Assembly: GCA_020747065.1 (NCBI GenBank)
Contig: JAGMVK010000022.1
Span: 248,001 to 312,000 of the forward strand
Direction: 5' to 3'
Length of the DNA: 64,000 nt
Source: Cadophora sp. MPI-SDFR-AT-0126
Taxonomy: Eukaryota; Ascomycota; Leotiomycetes; Helotiales; Ploettnerulaceae
Each line of letters starts with the position of its first letter. Positions within the stretch are counted from its first letter, which is position 1. Position numbers and translations under genes: made by a program. This document shows, piece by piece, positions 34,172-47,416 of the stretch. Below the pieces are notes generated by a model. It saw nothing but the letters and a program-made list of their open reading frames with translations. It was not told the DNA's origin and did no database searches.

Positions 34172-35803
34172 ATGTCTTCAACACTTGACGAAAGGAAGAC
34201 CCGCGAGGAGACAGAAGCATCACAGCCAATATCACCATCAGTCCAAGAACAAAGAGGGCAAACAGGCAATGCTAGAGATCTCGAAAAGGGTGTCTGTACA
34301 AGGGTAAAAAGTGATGAAGACGAATTGGTAATTCCCCTTCATCAACTTGTAACCGAGTGCTGACCAGCGTCAAGGTGACCTGGAATGGCGAACACGACAA
34401 AAATAACCCATACAACTGGCCAAGCTCTCGCAAATACACCATGACGGCACTCATGTCTCTCGGGGGGCTGGTGTCCACCTCCTCAACAAGTATGATGGCT
34501 CCAGCATTTTCCCAAATCAGTAATGACCTTAGGATCAGCGATTCAAAGACGCAGTTGACAATGTCAATCTACCTGTTGGCATTCGTGTTTGGACCAATGG
34601 TAATCGGACCTCTTTCTGAACTGTGTGGAAGAAAGAAGTTGTGGATTTTCTGTCACTGTTGGTATATTAGCTGGAATGCCCTGGCTCCTGTTGGCCAGGC
34701 AAGTGGGATGATGATTGCTGCTCGTTTTCTCTCCGGCTTTGGTGGAAGCGTGTCGATATCAGTAAGTCAACCGCGGTTCTCTTAGTACCACTTCTCATCG
34801 ATATATCTAGATCTCAGGACCTACAATGGCAGATATGTTCAAGGCCGAACAGCGAGGGAAATCATACGCACTAGTCACTTTTGCACCTTATCTTGGAGCT
34901 GCAATTGGACCCCTCGTTGGCGGAGGACTTTCTCAAGCGGCAGGATGGCCATGGCTGTTCTGGGCCGTCTCCATTTTTGACAGCATACTCATCACAATGT
35001 TTGCCATTTTCACACAAGAGACCTACGCACCCGTCGTCCTCGCCAAAAAGTCTAAGCAACTTCGACAAGCTACTGGTAGAGACCACCGGACAAAATTTGA
35101 GCGCAGCCATCCCAGGCTTTACCAGAAGCTGAAAGTGAGCATGATGCGGCCTGTCAAACTCTTCTTCACAAGCCCAACTATCCTCATTCTCGGTCTTCTC
35201 ACCTCATACAGCTTCGCCGTTTACATAATCGCCCTAACAACTTTTTCCACGATGTGGCAGGAGGAATATGGCCAATCGAAGACCAAAAGCAGTCTCAACT
35301 ACATCGCTATAGCTCTCGGCTCAACAGTCGGATCTCAAGTCACGGGTCCCCTCATCGACATCGTCTGGGCCCACCTCAGAAAGAAGAACAATGGCGCTAC
35401 AGCCCCAGAGTACCGCGTCCCCATGATGATACCTGGTATACTCATCATGCCCTTAGGACTCTTTATGTACGGCTGGGCAGTGGAGAAGCACTTACATTGG
35501 ACAATCGTTGATCTAGGAGCCGCTCTTATGAGCGGCGGCATGATGTCGTCCAGCAGTGTGATGTTCTCATATCTCATCGATGAGTTTGCGCAACATTCAG
35601 CAAGCGCAAATGCTGCTTGTAGAATCCTGTCGAACTCTTTCGCTTTTGGATTTCCGATATTCGCACCGAGTTTGTATGGGAAGCTGGGATATGGGTGGGG
35701 GAACAGTATGCTGGCATTTTTGTATATTGGGTTGGCTTTTCCGGCCCCTTGGATTCTGTGGAAATGGGGCGCGAGGATAAGAGCTGTAGGGAGACCGCAA
35801 TGA
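34172..35803 (+). CDS. MFS multidrug-type transporter (DHA1)
   Basis: Proton-coupled efflux transporter of the major facilitator superfamily, DHA1 group. Model: 34172-34327, 34375-34761, 34811-35803 (1536 nt, 511 residues). The acidic cytosolic N-terminus of about 50 residues is followed by WNGEHDKNNPYNWPSSRKY, the signature that precedes helix 1 in this group. Motif A appears as GPLSELCGRKKLW between helices 2 and 3, and SGFGGSVSIS-ISGPTMADMF spans the second intron where the family has its motif around helix 5. GAAIGPLVGGGL is the helix-5 antiporter motif (motif C). Twelve helices are apparent with a long central loop. It opens the accessory block that ends with the UstYa and peptide genes and could export a product, but distance alone is weak evidence. 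Confidence 0.9.
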
Positions 35804-36257
35804 GTGTTCAGACTCTAATAATGTGATTGATGAACAAAAGTGAGAAGATGATCAGTCTAACTTAGATCATCCTCGAGGCTGACAACAGCCGTGCTGGATA
35901 GTGCTTGCACCACAGCATTTCGCAGCACATTTGGAGCCACCACATTCTCATCCCTCTTTACCCGCCGCTCATACATGTCAGCTTTATCCTCCAATATGCA
36001 CACGCCGCAGGTACAGTCGCGTGAAGGCCACGCCACGTCATGTCCTTGGGTACTGACTGTCACATCGCATTGAGCCTTGGACGTGCTCCGACGCATGCTC
36101 AATCTCAAATTTCAACTCTTCGCTCGGTCGAACATCCGACTTTAAGATTCTCCTTCCAGATGCACTCAGCCTTCAAGTTGATGAACAAGCATGAGACTCA
36201 CCGTACCGCTCGTCCATGTTCTGCAATCATCTCAAAGAGGAATTAAAATTTTCGGCA
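35804..36257. other. Intergenic
   Basis: About 450 bases between the transporter and the protease-like gene. An 83-codon minus frame (35857-36108) has no recognisable feature. Likely the promoter of the gene at 36258. Confidence 0.4.
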
Positions 36258-37464
36258 ATGGCAAAATCCAAATTCCTCTCCTGTCCCCGCTGCAAGATGG
36301 AGCGTTGCCGATGGAAAGCCATCCTGTTGTTGTCATTGGGGTTTGCCCCCAAGCTCCTGGCTTGTTGATTATCACTGACATTACAGGATGCCCTGAACTG
36401 GTGTCACACGGCTAGAATAGCGGTCGGATCACCGCCTCAGTACTTTAATGCGGTGGTGGATGTCAGTACCTCTGATCTTACCATCCCTTCGCCGGCCTCA
36501 CGACGGACGTCATCACCTCCACTGCACTTTTACAATTCTTCTCTTTCAAGAACCTACGAGCCAAACGGTACCAAAATCTCGTCAAATCCCCTTGGTATCA
36601 AGACATCTGGTTTTCTTTCACAAGACAATTTGCATCTCTCCGACATGAGAGTGAAAGACCTTTTGTTCGAAGAAGCTACGTATCACGACTTTGAAGACTG
36701 TACGTATTGCAACTGGAATTACGATACGGTTCTTCCTCTCGGGCTTTTCAATCAAAGCGCCGCGAGGAATTTCATGTCGCCGATTGCAAAAATCACATCT
36801 GATCACCTCCTGGACGAAAATATCTTCTCATTACGCCTTTCAAGAAACACTCACGACGGGATTGGGCAACTGATTCTAGGTGGCCGTATCGATCCCTCGT
36901 TTTCATATGGCCTTGAGTTTACCATTCCAGTCGTGGCTTGGGAGAACGAATGGGTGGAGCAGCCGAACTGGAAAGTTGCAGCAGATTCAATCACTCTCGG
37001 AGACCCGTCCGTCAAGCCATATGTTCATCACTCTTTTGGGAATCGGACAATTGCAGTATTTCATACTGTGATCTCATGGATTGTACTGCCTCATAAACTC
37101 GCGAAGCAGCTGAACAGGGCTCTCGGTGCCAAGCACTGGGGTCCATATGCATTCGTCGATTGCGCAAGACGTCCAGATTTTCCCGACCTGACTATTGTCC
37201 TTGCTGGCCAGGAATTTGTCTTGACTCCATACGATTACATTATTGAGCAGGACGAATCAGGTAGAGTATCTTGCATGAGTGCATTCTTGGAGGATGTCGA
37301 CGAAGAGGGAACCATATTCTTGGGAAGTGCGTTTCTGAAGACGTGGATAACGGTCTGGGACTGGGAGCATCGTACCATAGGATGTGAGTTTTTGAGAATT
37401 TCCATGCTCGTAAGAATGTCGACTAACTCCAGATAAAGTTGCCAGAGCCATCCACACCGTCTGA
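36258..37464 (+). CDS. Pepsin-like (A1) protein with lost catalytic motifs
   Basis: Pepsin-family fold but predicted not to be a protease. Model: 36258-36340, 36416-37383, 37433-37464 (1083 nt, 360 residues); the phases agree and both introns have CTGAC or CTAAC branch sites. A hydrophobic signal-like segment (WKAILLLSLG) leads straight into VGSPPQYFNAVVDVSTSDLTIPSP. That aligns with the first active-site block (DTGSSDLWVPS), so DTG has become DVS. In the second block, where DTGTS is expected before the VLP, the sequence is HTVISWIVLP, so the Asp is His. Other family signs are GIGQLILGGRIDPS, the flap region and GTIFLGSAFLKTWITVWDWE near the C-terminus. The 5' splice is the least sure part, and the signal segment sits unusually close to the domain. 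Confidence 0.6.
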
Positions 37465-38820
37465 TATACGAGAGCGTCTTTTCGTGTCTTGAAGGAGTGC
37501 ACTTTGCCTACGATTGATGTACAGGGATCAAGTCCTGACCAGCCTACCGAGCAAATCTGTTTGCGACTAATCACACTCTGTGGTCGCACAAGAATGGTCG
37601 TTTCGAAGTGTCTGCGCAAATTCTACTGTGTGGGCAGTACCGCCAATTGCGATGGTTGTAATTACGATGGCTCCACTAGTATCAGTTACCACGGTCCACT
37701 TCACAGACGCCCGCTCTGAGGACGTGACTTCATTTTATCCCTATCACACTCAGCATACCTTCCACGCATACCGCTGTGGGACATGCACTCCGGACCAAGG
37801 GGTTTGCGGAGACCCTATTGGCAAGCGGTGGAGCCTATGCGTCCAGCTTAACCGGATGCTACACCACCCCCACAAACACAATCAGCCATGCCCAGATGCC
37901 GTTCAAGTCAAGTGGTTTGTTCGAAATTCCTGCATCGGGTATGCGTGTTCTTCTAACCTACTCGGTGCTTCATCTGAGCAGGATAATGTCAATAGAACGT
38001 ACCTGGGCTCACACTTTTCTCGTATCGCCGCATCTTACCCCGCCTTATAATTTAGATGAAGTCCGGTTTCTCGAGACTGCCAGACGCATGTAACTTTCCA
38101 TTCATCATATCGCCCTGCATGTCGCCACTATTTTCAATGTAGAGTGGGAACACTTTCCACATTGTCCCTTTTTGAAAGTCTATCTGTTGGGCCGCTGAGA
38201 ATGACCTGATGTTTCAAATGCTTTCATGTCAACGAATCACTCTCTTCATGTCCGACTTTACTTTGCCTGCATCCTCTTCCTGAAAATCTCATATTAGGCT
38301 TTGACATTGAAGTAATGTTCCGTCTGTGGCTCGTATCTCCTATCCAACCTGCTGTTAGTCGGTCCGCGAAGTTGACCTCCTTTTTTTCTTATTGTATGAG
38401 CCATATTCCATGCCTTACTCATGTCTCCTAAGGTTGCAAACTTCGCGTTCTTCAAAATCCCGTACATGAATATCCGTATACTTCGTGCGTGTTAAAATAC
38501 ATTCGAGGCTTCAACGCTTTCAGGCAAGTGACTGCGCCTCTGAGGTACATGTTTTTCCAAATGTATTGGACAGGCATGCAAAATCCTATTTATTCACTTA
38601 TCCTCCTTATGAGCAGGTGTGTGCATATATCCCAGCAACGAAGGGACTCTTGTAGGCTTTCCGGCTTCAGCTTCGCGTGAAGAACCATACTGGGTCATAT
38701 TATGGTAGATTGTGGATGAAGTATAAAGACAAGCGGCCTTGACAGGACCTATTCCAGTGCTATTTCTTCCAATCTTGTCTTCTGCTCGTGACTTATAGGC
38801 TTCATGCTAGATTAGTGACA
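37465..38820. other. Intergenic, possible unassigned coding traces
   Basis: About 1.35 kb. Plus-strand frames at 37580-38050 and 37776-38093 overlap in different phases; one contains a Cys-rich piece (RCGTCTPDQGVCGDPIG) and the other a Ser/Thr-rich piece, but neither has a start, splice pattern or family that I can support. The 3' part, near 38700-38820, precedes the GH55 gene and probably holds its promoter. Confidence 0.35.
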
Positions 38821-41800
38821 ATGACACGACTCCAAGATTGGAATCTTCTAAGTCTGCTTCTCGCTATTATCCTCATATCAAATGCTGCCGTCTCACATCT
38901 GTTCGAGGGCCACCCATATCTTGGAACCCAAGAGCAACACAATGAGATCTTCAGGATTGGTGCAGAGCGTGCTTCAGCCCGAGAATTGAATATTCAGCAT
39001 TTCCCAAAGGTTCCAAGATCTGTTGAGGCTCTAAGTAAGCACGACAACACACCTGAATCCAAGATCGAGGCTGCTCGCGCTCTCGTTGCTACAGCACAAG
39101 CAAACTCCGCCGCGATAAATCGAGCACGAATGGGACTTCCTTTGAGAAACACATATCGATCACGGCATTCCCAGCACCAGCAGCAATCTCGTCGAGACAG
39201 TGTTGCGTTGCCCGTACTAAGCACTGAGCTGATTGCTGCTGCAGCTCTCGTTGCTGAAGTTGATTCCGCTGCGCAAGCCAAAAACGGTACCCTCCATGAG
39301 GATTACTCGGAGTTTGATGCTCTGCGAGCTCGGCGTGATGGTAAAACCAGCCAAAAGGAAAAGAGGCAGACAAGTTCCTTTTGGATGGAAGGGCTGGAAC
39401 GTCATGGTACCCAATTAGGAGATACTACCTACCAGGTTTGATGGATGGATTCCACAAGTTGTGTACTTTGCTTATCATATTTGTGTAGGTGTGGAGAAAT
39501 GTAAAAGATTTTGGAGCCAAAGGTGATGGCATTACTGTTGGTCATAACTCCTGCACTAATGGACATGTGCTGACAAGCTTCAGGATGACACCGCCGCAAT
39601 AAACCGTGCCATAAGTGACGGAGAAAGGTGCGGTGCGCACTGCCTGTCTGCCAGTAACAAAGGAGCAATTGTGTACTTCCCATCGGGAACATACCTAGTC
39701 AGCTCTCCTATCATATCGATGTACAATACGCAAATGATAGGAAATGTGAGACAAACCAAAAACAACGCAATCACTTCACTAATCGTCGTTTAGGCCAATA
39801 GTTTTCCTGTAATTCGAGCTGCTGCTTCATTCCTGGGCTTAGGAGTTGTCACAAGTGATGTCTACTATCCCGATGGCGGAGGAGAAGAATGGTACATCGA
39901 ACAGGTGAGTTTCCATCTTGAAATTAAACACTAATCAGGATACTCACACTGGTCAGTCCAACTTTTATCGACAAATTCGATACTTCATTATCGACATATC
40001 GCAAGCCACCAAAGGAACTGCTGATGTCCCTATCGCAGGCATCCACTGGCAGGTAGCACAAGCGACGAGTTTATACTTTGTCAATTTTATCGCAGCGAAG
40101 AAACGGGGACTTACCAAGTTGGCATCTGTAACCTGATCCGTACACTTTTTCACTGTCTTACATCTCTGACTAATTTGGCTATAGTTGCTGAAAATGGAAG
40201 TGGCGGATTCATGAGCGAACTCACTTTTATTGGTGGAGCTTTCGGACTCTGTAAGTGACTTCTCGCATGCATTGTGAGCAATATGTTGATCGTTCCACGA
40301 TAGTGGGAGGCAACCAACAATTCACGTCTCGATCTCTAACATTCTCGAATGTCGAGACTGCGGTACAACTATTTTGGGACTGGGGCTGGAGCTGGATTGG
40401 TACGTACATCGAAAATTGCAGAGTCGGTTTCAATCTACTATCCCAAGACGGAAAGACTCGAGGAATTGGGTCTTTATTGGTTCTAGACTCACGATTCGTC
40501 AACACGGCACAAGGAATACTTACCTTCCCCCCGGTGGCAGGTGCCGCGAAGGGTACTACTGGTATCACGCTCGACAACGTTCAGTTCGAGTCTGTGGCTT
40601 CTGCGGTTACGGACACAGCCGGCAAAGTATGGTTAGCGGGAAGTGCTGGCAAAGTTGATACCTGGACGCTTGGAAACACTTATTTAGGCCAGAACTTCAC
40701 GGGTAAGCGACTACATGTGATAGTCTGGATCGATCGGTATGCCTCTCAAATGCTGACAGAATGCAGTGGGATATACAACTGGCACTTCATTCAGAACTCC
40801 TCGCCCAGTTATTCTCACCGCCAATGCCAACTCTCCCAATCAAGCCAAAAATGCCTTTCTGGAACAGCCAAAACCTCGGTATGAATCGCTTCCGACAAGT
40901 CAATTTGTACAAATGAAATGGTTTGCGAAAGGTTCGTCAACCATCTGACAGCTGAAGTCATGCATTCCTGTAACTTACAATTGCGAAGGCGACGGGGTCA
41001 CTGATGATACATCAGCTTTCCAAGCTACGATCAACGCCTACGCGGGAACAGGCAAAGTTATCTTCGTCGATGCGGGAACCTACATTTTGAAAGACACCAT
41101 TACCATTCCTTCCGGATCACTGATTGTTGGGGAATGCTGGCCAAGCTTGATGGCCTCAGGGAGGAATTTCCAAAATGCTTTGAAGCCTCGCGCTCTTTTC
41201 CAAGTCGGAGCCGTTGGTAGCAAGCCTGGTAAGGTTCAAATCCAAGATCTTCTCTTCACGAATACGGGTGCAACGGAAGGACTAGTAGCAGTGGAGTGGA
41301 ATTTGCCAATGGACAATCCGAGTTCTGGATCTGCAGCCATGTGGGGTAGGTTCAACAGCACTGATTGTGGAGATCGCACTTGTCCTAACGATATTCAGAC
41401 TCCCACGTAAGAATTGGTGGTGCCATCGGATCTGACTTGCAGCTCAAGAACTGTCCTGCAAGTCCTCCGAATAGCACGAAGACACCATGTAAAGCGGGGT
41501 CCATGATGTTCCACATCACCTCTACTGGGCAGGCATACCTGGAGAATGTTTGGCTGTGGACCGCAGACCACGACATCGACGACGCCAAGAACAGTCAGAT
41601 CAATGTTTACGTCGCACGAGGACTTCTCATAGAAAGCAAAGGCCCTGTTTGGCTATACGGAACTTCAGTCGAGCATGCTGTACTATACCAGTATGAGTTC
41701 TACAATGCGAACGGTGTCTTCGCAACTATGATACAAACGGAAAGCGTAAGTTATTGGAGTCTTGTCTGATGCACCTATCTGCATTTGTTAACTTCCGTAG

Positions 41801-43720
41801 CCGTATTTCCAGCCAACCCCGCCACCACCGGTACCATTTGCAGACGCCGTGGGTATTTTCAATGGTGATGCCAGGACGAATTGCACTAGTACACGCTCTG
41901 CAGGCTGCGATGCCTCATGGGCGGTTGTGGTCCAGTCCTCATCTAATCTTACCATTGCAGGCTTAGGTCTCTACTCATGTAGGTGATGGCTGTCCCTTTC
42001 AATTCCACTATACACTAAAACTGAAACCATCACTCTTTCAGGGTTCAGCAGTTACACTCAGACTTGTGTGAACACTCAGAGCTGCCAACAGGCTTTGATA
42101 TATATGGACACAGAACAGACATCGGTTAACAACCGCTTGTGGAATATTGTCACCATCGGCGCCGACAGAATGTTTGGTCATCCAGACAACGAAATATCGA
42201 TCCAAATCGATGCAATCGCCAACACGAATGCAGTCGCCTATCCATGGTGGAGTCTCATCACGACATATATCGTGTCTTCATTCACGATCTTTCCAGCCAA
42301 CCATGACTTCTACGGACTCGGGGACTCCTTCTCTGCCGGCATAGGAGCGGGTGCTACATACACACCCCCAGATTACCCCAATCCAGATCCCAACAACGAC
42401 TGCGCAAAGTGTATCAATGCATATCCAAATTCTATGAAGGTAAACGGGCCGCACTTGCAAGACTCTCGCTTTCGATTTTTCTCTTGTTCTGGTGGCAAGA
42501 CAGACAGTATCGTGAGCCCTCCCGGACCAGGAAAGGTAAGCCAGGTCGAACTCATCAACGCCGATCATCTGGTGACCAAGGTGGGATTCTCAACCCTATC
42601 CATTGGCGGCAACAATGTAGGGTTTTCAAAAGTCCTCAAACGCTGCATTCTCCACGTGAAGAGTGACTGCGAGGAGCAGTTCACGCGTTGCGAGCGACGG
42701 ATCAACGGTGGTGTTACAGGACCCGATGGCCAACTTCAGGCAAATCTCACTGAGAGCTACAGACAGATTCTGGGACAGATGACAGTTCCCACATTTATAC
42801 TATATGTGACCGGATACGCCAGGTTCTTCAACGAGCTTACAGATGTTTGCGACGATAAGAAAATGATGCCCGTGCCTTTGATTGGTGGGGTAAGTGCTTT
42901 TCAACCCAGAATCATCGTGATAGAGACTGATTTGTATCGTTTATCCAGAGAGTTCGACCGTTGTTGAGCAAGGAATTACGTGCGAGAGTCAACAGGGCTG
43001 CGCTGGCCTTGAATACGCAGATTCAACGAGCAATCGCCACTGTCAACCAAGAGAATATCGATAGGGGGTCCGGGAAGAGGGTTCGCTTTGTCGATATCGA
43101 TGATGTAAGTTATACTTTGGGGCCCTATCTGTTTCCCTACTTCGTATCTTGACAATCCGTAAGATTTGTGACTGACAGTACCCTCAGATATTTGAAGAGC
43201 ATAGGTTCTGCGATGTAGGAAATGATAGAAGCGGAGACTGGAAAAAGAATGCATGGTTTTTCCCACCGCTCATTGGCTGGGATCGAAACAAGAATTCACC
43301 AGACGACGAAGAGGGTGAGCTGGACAGCCCAGGACCAGTCCCGATCCGGCCTACAACCGATCTTAGCAAAATCGTAGGTTATCATTCTTCCGCATTAACG
43401 CTTTGAGACTTTAAAGATCAGAAACCTATCTGATCTTCAAACTAACCTAGTGCCAGAACATCAAAACATGCGAAGCAGACGCAGAAAAAAGTGGACATTG
43501 GGGCGATGAGTTCATGTGCGAGTTGGCTCAAGACCTTGCGGAGTCGACGGCCACCAACAAGACATTCGTCCCTGTGGAAGATAGCAACGGCGTTGTGGTC
43601 TACAACCAAGATGTCCGGGTCCTTTGGACAGACTGGATCTTCAGGGCGTTTCATCCGAAGAGTATTGCGTATGAAAGGATTGGTGCTAGGATTTACTATT
43701 ACTACTATACACATTTCTAG
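38821..43720 (+). CDS. GH55 exo-beta-1,3-glucanase fused to SGNH hydrolase, one apparent frameshift
   Basis: Fifteen-exon model: 38821-39435, 39489-39536, 39584-39745, 39794-39904, 39957-40127, 40185-40250, 40304-40702, 40767-40931, 40989-41345, 41399-41745, 41801-41978, 42042-42889, 42949-43104, 43188-43373, 43451-43720. The total is 4079 nt, one short of a multiple of three. With one base restored in exon 5 the product is about 1359 residues. A signal peptide and an Ala-rich pro-region end at KEKR (181-182), a likely Kex2 site. Two GH55 right-handed beta-helix repeats start at KDFGAKGDGITDDTAAIN and WFAKGDGVTDDTSAF, with AENGSGGF and YPWWSLITTY. Eleven residues later, in the same exon, comes an SGNH domain: GLGDSFSAGIG (Ser969), SIGGNNVGF (1061-1068) and FHP (His1338). 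Predicted secreted, acting on fungal or plant beta-1,3-glucan and an unknown ester. Confidence 0.85.
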
Positions 43721-44415: not shown

Positions 44416-45460
44416 TCATGGCATTGTCTCATAAACATCTGCTATCCTTGGCATTTGCAAGTAGTCCGCCGGCACATCTTTTGGTGCCTGATGCTCGAAT
44501 GCCCATTGCCGTATATCCTCAAAGTTCCTGCACTTATGCCTGGTGTTGAAGTCTGGGTATGCCGCTGGCTGATCCTTATTCCACCATACCTGCCCCAAGA
44601 CCCCCACATCAGCCGTACACATCAATTGCTGCCGTAAAGTATCCAGGCAATGCGCTGAGAGTTGCGAAGTCAGCTTTGGATATTTGCTTGGAAGACCCCA
44701 AGAGGTACAGAAGCGGCGCTACTTACTGACGTGAAAGCGCAGGATCTCGTCTTTGTTGCTGAATGCCCCTTTCCCCAGGCTGTGATAGTAATCGAAATTG
44801 AAATACAGAGCCTGTCTTAAAAGATTCAGACAATGTAGATGGTGCAAGCCTTCAACGTTCGCAGGAAACCCTCCACCATATCGTTCTGAAACCTGAACCT
44901 GGGAGTCTATCAATCCAGATGCTGCTGCCAGCTCGGGAGGTACAATGGCAGCTCTGTCTGTTAGGAAACATGTCAGCAAAATACACAGCTGAGAAAGTTT
45001 TATGACGGGTTGATGGGTTGACAAACAATCTACTCCGAGAGTTTGCCATGCGGCATCTACGGCCGGTGATCCTGTTGCTCGGAAGATGTTCTCATGCATG
45101 AGAGAACCGTTGAATCTTTGAGTCGCATATCGTATAGGCACATCTTTGAGAACCGGTGCTAGATAGTCGTCAGCACCCTACTATCACAGACGGAAATTAA
45201 ATCATACAATAGTTCGAAGTATGCGCGATACAGAATCTATCTGGATTTCCTCGACCTCCAATCCATATTCCAACGAAAACCGCAATTACAAGAGATGTTA
45301 ATATCGCTATTGCGGAGCAGAATCGAGCCAGTCTGGATTTTTGAGAGCTAGCTAATAGTGGCACACGTGGGTCCTGCACCGAATCTTTGATCAAAGACTC
45401 GCAATCTTCATCTGTTGATGGGCGGTCCAGAGACTCATTCGAAGACTTGAAGGGGAACAT
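44416..45460 (-). CDS. UstYa-family (DUF3328) oxidase
   Basis: Member of the UstYa/DUF3328 family, membrane-anchored copper-type oxidases that cyclise or oxidise fungal ribosomal peptides such as ustiloxin, phomopsin and asperipin. Model: 45208-45460, 45027-45158, 44727-44957, 44416-44654 (855 nt, 284 residues). A cytosolic N-terminus (about 44 residues, Ser/Asp-rich) precedes one membrane helix (AIAILTSLVIAVFVGIWIG), placing the catalytic part in the lumen. The two diagnostic HxxHC motifs are intact: HHLHC at 167-171 and HVTHC at 204-208. RFNGSLMHEN, IVPPEL and YGGGFPANVEGLHHLHC are typical, and WWNKDQPAAYPDFNTRHKC follows. Each intron removes sequence absent from the family. In-frame ATGs at 45488-45490 and 45527-45529 are alternative starts. 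The secreted Tyr-repeat peptide gene is 1.4 kb away. Confidence 0.92.
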
Positions 45461-46895
45461 CTTGCTTCTAGTAAAGAAAGTGCCATTCATGTGGTCTCGA
45501 GATCGAATTGTAGAGAATTGGCAGGGCAAGATCCAGGGTGGAAATCTCTCGCGGCAAAGAATACCATCACATGTCGTGTGTACCTTTGGTGACCCTGCAG
45601 CTCGACTATCTCCACAAGCTCACTTTTGCCCAAGCAGTGAAGCCACAATTGGGCTGTTTTCAGCTGAACAGCTGTCGGTGTCTAGCTTCCCATGAAGCTT
45701 TACACTTTTCCTCATCCGTCGACGCCTCGAAGAGGGGTAGCTCCTATCGCAAAGCACAAAGTGTAAAAAAAGCCATGGTGAAATACACCTTATGCATGCG
45801 GCTTGATGATCGATCGGTTCTAGATTTGCTTGAGGAATGCGCCACCAAATCCGCTGAATGGGTTAACCTGGGGAAGCCTCTTCAGCCCTACTGTAAATCT
45901 TGCTTGGCATGCAACGCATCGGTGATATCGCTTAACGACAACTGCGAACTAGACTGGTTCTTGTTATTCAAAGTCAATGGCTCCGGTTCCCATATGATGG
46001 ACTCGGTCTCCTGCTGTAGATCTTGATGAGATCATAGCATGTGGTGAGAGCCGGGAGTTCGTTGCAAAGGATAATATCTGGAAGTTTAAGTATTGATCTG
46101 CCAGATCTTCTGCGGGGTAAAGACCGCCGCTCAGATATGATGCCCGCGAGAATTCTGTGATAACCTCTGCTGTCTATCTAAAGACCTCTTTGCTTAGCCT
46201 GTGGTGGTCATGGCTTTCAATATCCGACTCCCAGCATGGACACTTGCCCAAGAGGTCACAGGACTTTATCCGAGCTGCAGTCATGATATCCACAGGTACT
46301 TCTAACCAATACTCTGAGCCTCGAAATGCTAGCGTAGTGACAATGTTGGCAGCTTCCCTTGCCAACGTTCTTAATTCGACTATGTGCATGTACCTCTAGG
46401 ATCTCCATGCCGCATTCTTGGCGAGGCTGGGTAGTCACCACTCGTACGGAGGTACCGAGGGTAAAAGGCTCGATGCCATTGGTAAACAAAACGAAACCAT
46501 CAATAGCCTCTAAAATCCGAAAACATGGATGTCTCAGAGAGCAGGAGTGACAACGAACAAGATTCAAGATCTAGTAAAGTGGCTTCCAAATCGACGCTCC
46601 CATTGGCTGGTGATGACGTCCATGGACCCAAGAATGAGGACTTTTTAACTCTACTGAGATAATGTCTCAAAGTAACATGGTGTACCCTCAGGTGCATGGA
46701 CGTGGCAGCCATTCTAAGCCTTATTAGAGCTCGGCTGAGCTTCATCCAACAGGGCGGCAAAAGAAGCATGTGCAGAGCTTGTAGCTCTAATAAGTAGCTC
46801 TGCCCAGCTCGAGAACAGAAAAAAAGTCGTCGTACCTGCAGCTCCTGAGTCTCTACAGTTCAACTTTGTCCATAGCCTCAGCAAAAAAATTCATC
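45461..46895. other. Region between UstYa and peptide genes, with coding traces
   Basis: About 1.4 kb. On the minus strand, parts read as fragmented coding sequence: a frame near 46560-46400 (EAIDGFVLFTNGIEPFTLGTSVRVVTT), one near 46390-46174 (ELRTLAREAANIVTTLAFRG), and another near 46030-45890. They could be exons of a decayed or unresolved gene, but I could not join them into an intact model or name a family. The last 200 bases before 46896 probably carry the promoter of the peptide gene; that of UstYa lies near 45461-45900. Confidence 0.35.
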
Positions 46896-47416
46896 ATGAA
46901 GTTCACAGCTGTTCTCCTTCCTCTCGCGCTTGCTTCTACAGCATTTGCCGCTCCAGTACCTGTGGAGGCTCGTGAGGCAGCTCCCCAATACGCCGATTAT
47001 GGAGATTAGTAGGTACTTTTCTGTTTAGACGTCCTGATATACACACTTCCCGCTTACTCGCCTCCACGTGGTTTGCTGACTTCTAATCCCTCAGTGCCGA
47101 TGCCACTTACGCATCCTATGGGGACTATGCTGGCGCTCCTGTCGCTCCTGTCGCTAACCCAGCAGCTCCTGCAGGAGGATACGGAAGCTACGGAGGTAAG
47201 CTTTCACCGTCTCAAATCTCCCTGTCACTTCTCCAAGACATCACGGCGCAGCACTCACTAGAAGGACCTCGAGAAATACTGGAATGACTTCTGGAATGCC
47301 TCGCATTGACAGAGCTAATTATCTGCATAGACTATCCTGCCCCAGCCGGAGGGTATGGTTCGTACGGCACCTACAAGAGAGCGCTTGGAGCATTTGTCAA
47401 GAGAATCTTTGGTTAA
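46896..47416 (+). CDS. Secreted Tyr/Gly-repeat peptide with Lys-Arg sites, candidate RiPP precursor
   Basis: Three-exon model (46896-47008, 47095-47195, 47331-47416; 300 nt, 99 residues). Start ATGAAGTTC is followed by a clear signal peptide (residues 1-18, ending AFA-AP). The rest is built from a Tyr motif of the form YxxYGxY, found four times at residues 32-38, 43-49, 67-73 and 80-86. The last two lie in two 13-residue tandem units (61-73 and 74-86; APAGGYGSYG in common). Lys-Arg pairs at 87-88 and 95-96 are possible Kex2 sites near the C-terminus. Signal peptide, aromatic repeats, Kex2 sites and a UstYa gene nearby fit a fungal ribosomal-peptide precursor, although classical ones have a Kex2 site after each repeat. 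A structural wall peptide or effector is the alternative. Confidence 0.8.

What the first reader, a model, noticed from the sequence alone, without database searches (positions are those of the whole stretch)
44416..47416. Candidate minimal fungal RiPP locus: UstYa oxidase plus Tyr-repeat secreted peptide
Seen: an intact UstYa/DUF3328 gene (two HxxHC motifs) lies 1.4 kb from a 99-residue gene with a signal peptide, four YxxYGxY repeats and Lys-Arg sites. Known: dikaritin-type pathways combine a Kex2-processed secretory precursor carrying aromatic core repeats with UstYa oxidases that cross-link Tyr side chains. Inference: the Tyr repeats are the substrate of this oxidase, giving a cross-linked Tyr-rich peptide. 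The layout differs from described clusters: no Kex2 site between repeats and no methyltransferase, peptidase or second UstY gene in sight.
Basis: partly seen in the sequence, partly recalled or inferred. Interest (0 to 1): 0.85.

Follow-up and report, generated by a model that had tools for sequence, protein, structure and literature searches.

The report
UstYa oxidase with Tyr-rich peptide precursor
In a fungus, a gene for a peptide-modifying oxidase sits head to head with a gene for a secreted tyrosine-rich peptide; the same kind of pair recurs elsewhere in this genome and probably in distant fungi, so the two likely make a modified peptide together.

Summary
At 44416-45490 (-) lies an intact four-exon UstYa/DUF3328 gene with HHLHC and HVTHC. 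At 46896-47416 (+) lies a three-exon gene for a 99-aa secreted-type peptide with four YxxYGxY units and two KR sites. They are divergent, 1.4 kb apart, in a genome matching Cadophora sp. MPI-SDFR-AT-0126.

The pairing looks more than chance. A genome-wide Tyr-motif search, blind to UstYa, gave two places with spaced repeats: this one and one on contig C4, which encodes a three-core Kex2-repeat precursor, divergent and 1.4 kb from a UstYa paralogue. Geoglossum umbratile (another class) has peptide and UstYa relatives under consecutive locus tags on one contig; Mollisia scopiformis has both on one contig.

The peptide belongs to a widespread family that my paper searches did not find described: signal peptide, one to three Tyr-rich cores, Kex2-type sites, often an amphipathic tail. 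"No Kex2 between repeats" is a single-core state within it.

Best reading: a two-gene, dikaritin-like RiPP cassette. The chemistry is inferred, and linkage in most other carriers could not be checked. New variant of a known kind.

The parts
44416..45490 (-). UstYa/DUF3328 (PF11807) oxidase gene; exons 45490-45208, 45158-45027, 44957-44727, 44654-44416; 294 aa (284 aa in the public record); predicted membrane helix, then a domain with HHLHC and HVTHC
   Evidence: Spliced by hand with GT..AG introns; Pfam match 140 bits; identical public protein P0032; AF2 model, mean pLDDT 74, helix 42-69 in P0032 numbering read as the membrane anchor
45491..46895 (.). Divergent intergenic region, 1405 bp, between the two start codons (shared promoter region inferred)
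   Evidence: no k-mer sharing with the C4 intergenic region beyond chance
46896..47416 (+). Tyr-repeat secreted peptide precursor gene; exons 46896-47008, 47095-47195, 47331-47416; 99 aa
   Evidence: frame slip at exon 3; corrected; relatives
46896..46949 (+). Signal peptide (residues 1-18, boundary approximate)
   Evidence: Read from sequence; Pfam MF_alpha_N only E = 0.084, below cut-off
46974..47374 (+). Tyr-rich core, about residues 27-86 (12 Tyr in 60 residues), interrupted by two introns; four YxxYGxY units
   Evidence: N-terminal processing site (AR before EAAPQ) is inferred
47375..47380 (+). Lys-Arg (residues 87-88), Kex2-type site that ends the core
   Evidence: Sequence; a dibasic site followed by a 7-14 residue tail ends 64 of 123 family rows, window included
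47381..47413 (+). C-terminal tail ALGAFVKRIFG (second KR inside)
   Evidence: Tails as a class are amphipathic: mean helical moment 0.546 against shuffled mean 0.316, maximum 0.378 in 1000 shuffles, 61 distinct tails; the window tail alone is not significant (0.24 of shuffles reach it)

Best explanation
A two-gene, dikaritin-like RiPP cassette. The peptide enters the secretory pathway by its signal peptide. The neighbouring UstYa protein, a single-pass membrane protein with its HxxHC domain in the lumen, oxidises Tyr residues of the Tyr-rich core, probably forming Tyr-derived cross-links and possibly hydroxylation instead. Kex2 cuts after the KR that ends the core, freeing a core of about 60 residues and the tail, which may act as a follower recognition segment. 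The modified peptide is secreted. Shown: intact genes, a real peptide family, a second linked pair in this genome. Indicated by tags and contig lengths: linkage in two other fungi. Inferred: the enzyme-substrate relation, the chemistry, the order of steps and the role of the tail.
For: Intact divergent pair. Second pair in the same genome: C4 UstYa (P0072, 52% identical to the window's) and a 218-aa precursor with three KR-flanked Tyr cores, found by motif and not by position. The chance that one given place lies within 3 kb of a UstYa locus is about 0.4%. The intergenic distances are alike, 1405 and 1425 bp. Geoglossum umbratile: peptide P0165 = M1839_000997 and UstYa P0053 = M1839_000998, both on a 101,775-base contig. 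Mollisia scopiformis: P0161 and P0039 both on a 1,547,631-base contig. The window, Mollisia and Geoglossum UstYa proteins fall on one side of the tree, a 34-row group (SH-aLRT 89, midpoint root, quick search), the C4 paralogue on the other. Bridge peptide P0182 has C4-like cores and a tail of the window's kind. Published link: 22% of Kex2-repeat precursors have DUF3328 genes nearby, and Tyr is more common in those, 65.6% against 38.2% of repeats (PMC7329392 section 7).
Against: No product, expression or binding data. By displayed name only 4 of 23 named peptide-family species also appear among the 120 UstYa hits listed (of 456). In 2 of those 4 (Mollisiaceae sp. DMI_Dod_QoI, Pseudogymnoascus VKM F-4518) the listed UstYa is on another contig, though both hits lie on the C4 side of the UstYa tree. 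Seven named genera in the window's UstYa group (Acephala, Phialocephala, Bisporella, Oidiodendron, Xylogone, Cryomyces, Glarea) show no peptide relative among the listed hits; this is weak, since the window's own peptide gave no identical hit either. Direct BLASTP of the two peptides of this genome is weak (E = 0.034), and the genome search with the window peptide did not find the C4 gene, so their common origin rests on bridge sequences. Mollisia linkage is contig-level only. Geoglossum adjacency rests on tags and contig length, not on DNA that I read.
Confidence: 0.72

Rival explanations
1. The peptide is a Tyr/Gly-rich structural, adhesive or wall peptide, assembled through its low-complexity aromatic repeats or oxidised by general peroxidases, and the UstYa neighbour is incidental.
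For: Low-complexity Y/G/P composition; a widespread family with many members whose neighbourhood is unknown; Pleosporales members such as Bipolaris end differently and may lack the partner.
Against: Two of two spaced-repeat places in this genome (stricter pattern) lie beside UstYa genes; consecutive tags in Geoglossum and same contig in Mollisia.
Confidence: 0.12
2. A sub-case of the best explanation: UstYa acts on the peptide but not by cross-linking; it hydroxylates Tyr (DOPA-like) or dehydrogenates residues, giving a metal-binding, adhesive or pigment-forming peptide. Its odds overlap with those of the best explanation.
For: The UstYa family does ether formation, hydroxylation and chlorination (PMC12048977 passages) and desaturation (PMC10512285 passages); 12 Tyr in a 60-residue stretch is many for small macrocycles.
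Against: [quoted passage not shown]
Confidence: 0.3
3. The Kex2-released tail is the bioactive product (a signal or membrane-active peptide), and the Tyr region is a pro-sequence.
For: Tail present in 64 of 123 rows and amphipathic as a class.
Against: No such tail in the C4 precursor or in Bipolaris and Exserohilum members, while every one of the 123 rows keeps at least two YxxY steps; two of the 61 distinct tails are acidic.
Confidence: 0.12

Closest known systems
Dikaritins (ustiloxin, phomopsin, asperipin-2a, victorin)
   Same: Signal-peptide precursor, Kex2-type sites, Tyr-containing core, UstYa/DUF3328 partner with two HxxHC motifs
   Different: Here one long Tyr-rich core (about 60 aa, 12 Tyr) instead of several short cores; no second UstY in the window and no tyrosinase, methyltransferase or S41 peptidase in the 30 ORFs scanned; product unknown
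Asperipin-2a pathway (aprA, aprY, aprT, aprR)
   Same: A single UstY protein, Tyr-rich core, very small cluster (PMC6514808 passages)
   Different: No isoflavone-reductase-like domain among the 30 ORFs scanned; an MFS gene lies about 9 kb away with no evidence of linkage; core length differs
Kex2-processed repeat proteins (KEPs; Le Marquer 2019, Umemura 2020)
   Same: The C4 precursor and relatives such as P0177 have Kex2-separated repeats
   Different: The window peptide fails the published rule of at least 3 repeats of at least 8 aa between Kex2 sites (PMC7329392 section 13), so such surveys would miss it

Membership tests
Dikaritin RiPP | UstYa/DUF3328 oxidase with two HxxHC motifs (suggested class-defining feature, PMC12048977 passages) | tested here: met
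   PF11807 140 bits; HHLHC and HVTHC
Dikaritin RiPP | Precursor with ER signal peptide | tested here: inconclusive
   Clear by eye, no SignalP; Pfam MF_alpha_N only E = 0.084
Dikaritin RiPP | Repeated cores separated by Kex2 sites | tested here: not met
   Window gene: no dibasic site between Tyr units. Met in the C4 precursor and, by a simple split at KR/RR/KK, in 15 of 123 family rows
Dikaritin RiPP | Tyr in the core | tested here: met
   12 Tyr in residues 27-86
Dikaritin RiPP | Oxidatively cyclised product | not testable with these tools
   Needs mass spectrometry
KEP (Umemura 2020 rule) | At least 3 tandem repeats of at least 8 aa between Kex2 sites | tested here: not met
   Window precursor has one core; C4 precursor has three
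Alpha-factor type pheromone precursor | MF_alpha / MF_alpha_N domains | tested here: not met
   13.2 bits against cut-off 22 for MF_alpha_N; no other Pfam family listed at E <= 1

The most novel reading that the evidence does not exclude
A widespread class of two-gene fungal RiPP cassettes, uncatalogued because its precursors are small, intron-split and often single-core. One UstYa enzyme installs many Tyr modifications along a 40-60 residue peptide (a cross-linked or DOPA-rich mini-protein rather than a small macrocycle), guided by a conserved amphipathic follower segment. The cassette has existed as a unit since before the split of Leotiomycetes and Geoglossomycetes and was duplicated with its divergent layout.
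Probability: 0.38. Interest if true: 0.78.

Novelty: new variant of a known kind. Interest (0 to 1): 0.62.

Why it matters
UstYa genes are numerous in this fungus (46 matches at 26 places by my grouping, 25 of them with a match over the cut-off), but few family members have known substrates (recalled). A two-gene pair with a recognisable precursor gives a direct enzyme-substrate test, shows why repeat-based searches miss precursors, and may reveal UstYa acting on long Tyr-rich peptides.

Tried and rejected

Literature: searches for the letter strings YGSYG with fungal and secreted, AGGYGSY and YGKYG, and for Cadophora with RiPP, listed no paper that describes this family; the wider listings were read as titles and abstract starts. 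Supplementary tables were not readable, so some members may be listed there; the Tyr-rich type G-6 of Umemura 2020 could be related.

Own errors corrected: one search slipped the exon-3 frame (fixed). The automatic splice model read through introns (replaced). The tail count was too low because gapped alignment rows overwrote sequences (rerun); may have read the same gapped rows. The repeat scan did not flag the C4 gene itself, so its blanks at other UstYa loci mean little. The chance script used 27 UstYa loci; my recount gives 26.

Full report
What is there. The window is contig C15:248001-312000 of a 54-Mb, 38-contig fungal genome. Its UstYa protein is identical over the aligned part to a public protein of Cadophora sp. 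MPI-SDFR-AT-0126 (P0032), a member of Helotiales. The UstYa gene has four exons, 294 aa by my model, and both HxxHC motifs. The peptide gene has three exons and 99 aa, with 12 Tyr in the 60-residue stretch before the first KR. The two genes are divergent with 1405 bp between the start codons.

Family of the peptide. One single-sequence search (31 proteins at E <= 1) and one profile search (139 at E <= 0.01, 120 listed) gave 122 distinct relatives (count). Twenty-three named species are among them; by my reading of the names they belong to Leotiomycetes, Geoglossomycetes, lichen fungi, Sordariomycetes and Dothideomycetes (only Geoglossum, Mollisia and Cadophora were looked up). Each of the 123 rows, window included, has at least two overlapping YxxY steps. 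Sixty-four of 123 end in a dibasic site plus a 7-14 residue tail, and as a class the tails are amphipathic (mean moment 0.546; 0 of 1000 shuffles reach it); the window's own tail is not significant alone. Fifteen of 123 have two or more Tyr blocks separated by dibasic sites; the split also took KK, so a few may not be Kex2 sites. The window peptide itself gave no identical database hit, so it seems unannotated in the public proteome.

A second pair in the same genome. The pattern for YxxYGxY gave 170 matches genome-wide, of which about the first 100 are listed. The stricter Y[G/A]xYGxY gave 18, all listed. Non-overlapping double matches within a few hundred bases occur only at C15 (this gene) and at C4:797074/797320; overlapping runs occur at C11 and C23. 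Reversed-pattern controls had more matches than the motif (362 against 170, 69 against 18), so it is the spacing, not the number of matches, that stands out. The C4 place lies beside the UstYa hit C4:793792-794382. Reading it gave a ten-exon, 218-aa precursor with three KR-flanked cores, 1425 bp from the UstYa start by my reading, divergent. The two UstYa proteins are 52% identical. This place was found without using position, so it is a fair test; the chance that a given place lies within 3 kb of a UstYa locus is about 0.4%. Genome searches with the window peptide and the C4 peptide found no further copy at E below 0.3, but the first did not find the C4 gene either, so more distant copies could be missed.

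Other species. In Geoglossum umbratile the peptide relative P0165 is M1839_000997 and the UstYa relative P0053 is M1839_000998, both on a contig of 101,775 bases. In Mollisia scopiformis P0161 and P0039 share a contig of 1,547,631 bases. I infer adjacency from the tags; I did not see the DNA. Two more species occur in both lists with the genes on different contigs, but their UstYa hits (P0136, P0107) lie on the other side of the UstYa tree, with the C4 paralogue. For 19 of 23 named peptide species no UstYa hit is listed under that name, and 336 of 456 UstYa hits were not shown, so linkage there cannot be told.

Control in the same genome. At C33 a classical Kex2-repeat precursor (repeats around ALGNYYEQ) lies next to a group of UstYa matches. 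So a multi-UstY locus of the canonical kind exists beside the two-gene pairs. DNA around 10 further UstYa places of 26 was fetched (C33 only in part) and scanned by script, a scan that missed the C4 gene and is therefore insensitive.

Mechanism. AF2 gives a long N-terminal helix (42-69) that I read as the membrane anchor, and puts both HxxHC motifs on helices of the part after it (mean pLDDT 74). That, the signal peptide and the Kex2 sites put enzyme and substrate in the same compartment (inference). UstYa proteins act on Tyr of Kex2-processed cores (PMC7329392 section 7; PMC6514808 passages), and a single UstY suffices for asperipin-2a. I therefore favour UstYa oxidation of the Tyr core. Cross-link versus hydroxylation is open.

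Place among known systems. It works like a dikaritin pathway; formal membership is incomplete because Kex2-separated repeats are absent from the window gene and the product is unknown. The published rule for Kex2-repeat proteins would miss it (section 13 of PMC7329392). Papers seen: PMC6339444 abstract and sections 6, 10, 16; PMC7329392 abstract and sections 6, 7, 13; PMC12048977, PMC6514808 and PMC10512285 passages only; others as search listings.

Noticed in passing
G000 C4:793792-797388 (L019/L020): Second UstYa plus Tyr-repeat precursor pair; the precursor gene has ten exons including two 9-nt microexons inside the repeats.
   Followed up: yes
G000 C33, about 976138 (minus) with UstYa matches 976942-980981 (L033): Classical Kex2-repeat precursor with ALGNYYEQ-like repeats beside several UstYa matches; looks like a canonical dikaritin-type locus.
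   Followed up: partly
G000 C36:2636000-2645999 (L030), near UstYa C36:2635560: Tandem-repeat ORFs with RR sites (unit around SGEGVVVADKEKYD in one frame, another repeat in the second frame); coding frame not decided.
   Followed up: no
G000 C20:135734-144359: Dense group of UstYa matches (nine HMM matches within 9 kb); no repeat precursor flagged by my simple, insensitive scan.
   Followed up: no
window 34318-43720: MFS transporter, aspartyl protease, rhamnogalacturonase/pectate-lyase-like ORFs and an SGNH-like ORF without Pfam match, all on the plus strand on the far side of the UstYa gene.
   Followed up: partly
family rows P0182 and P0230: Bridge peptides that combine C4-type Tyr cores with the amphipathic tail of the window's kind.
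   Followed up: partly
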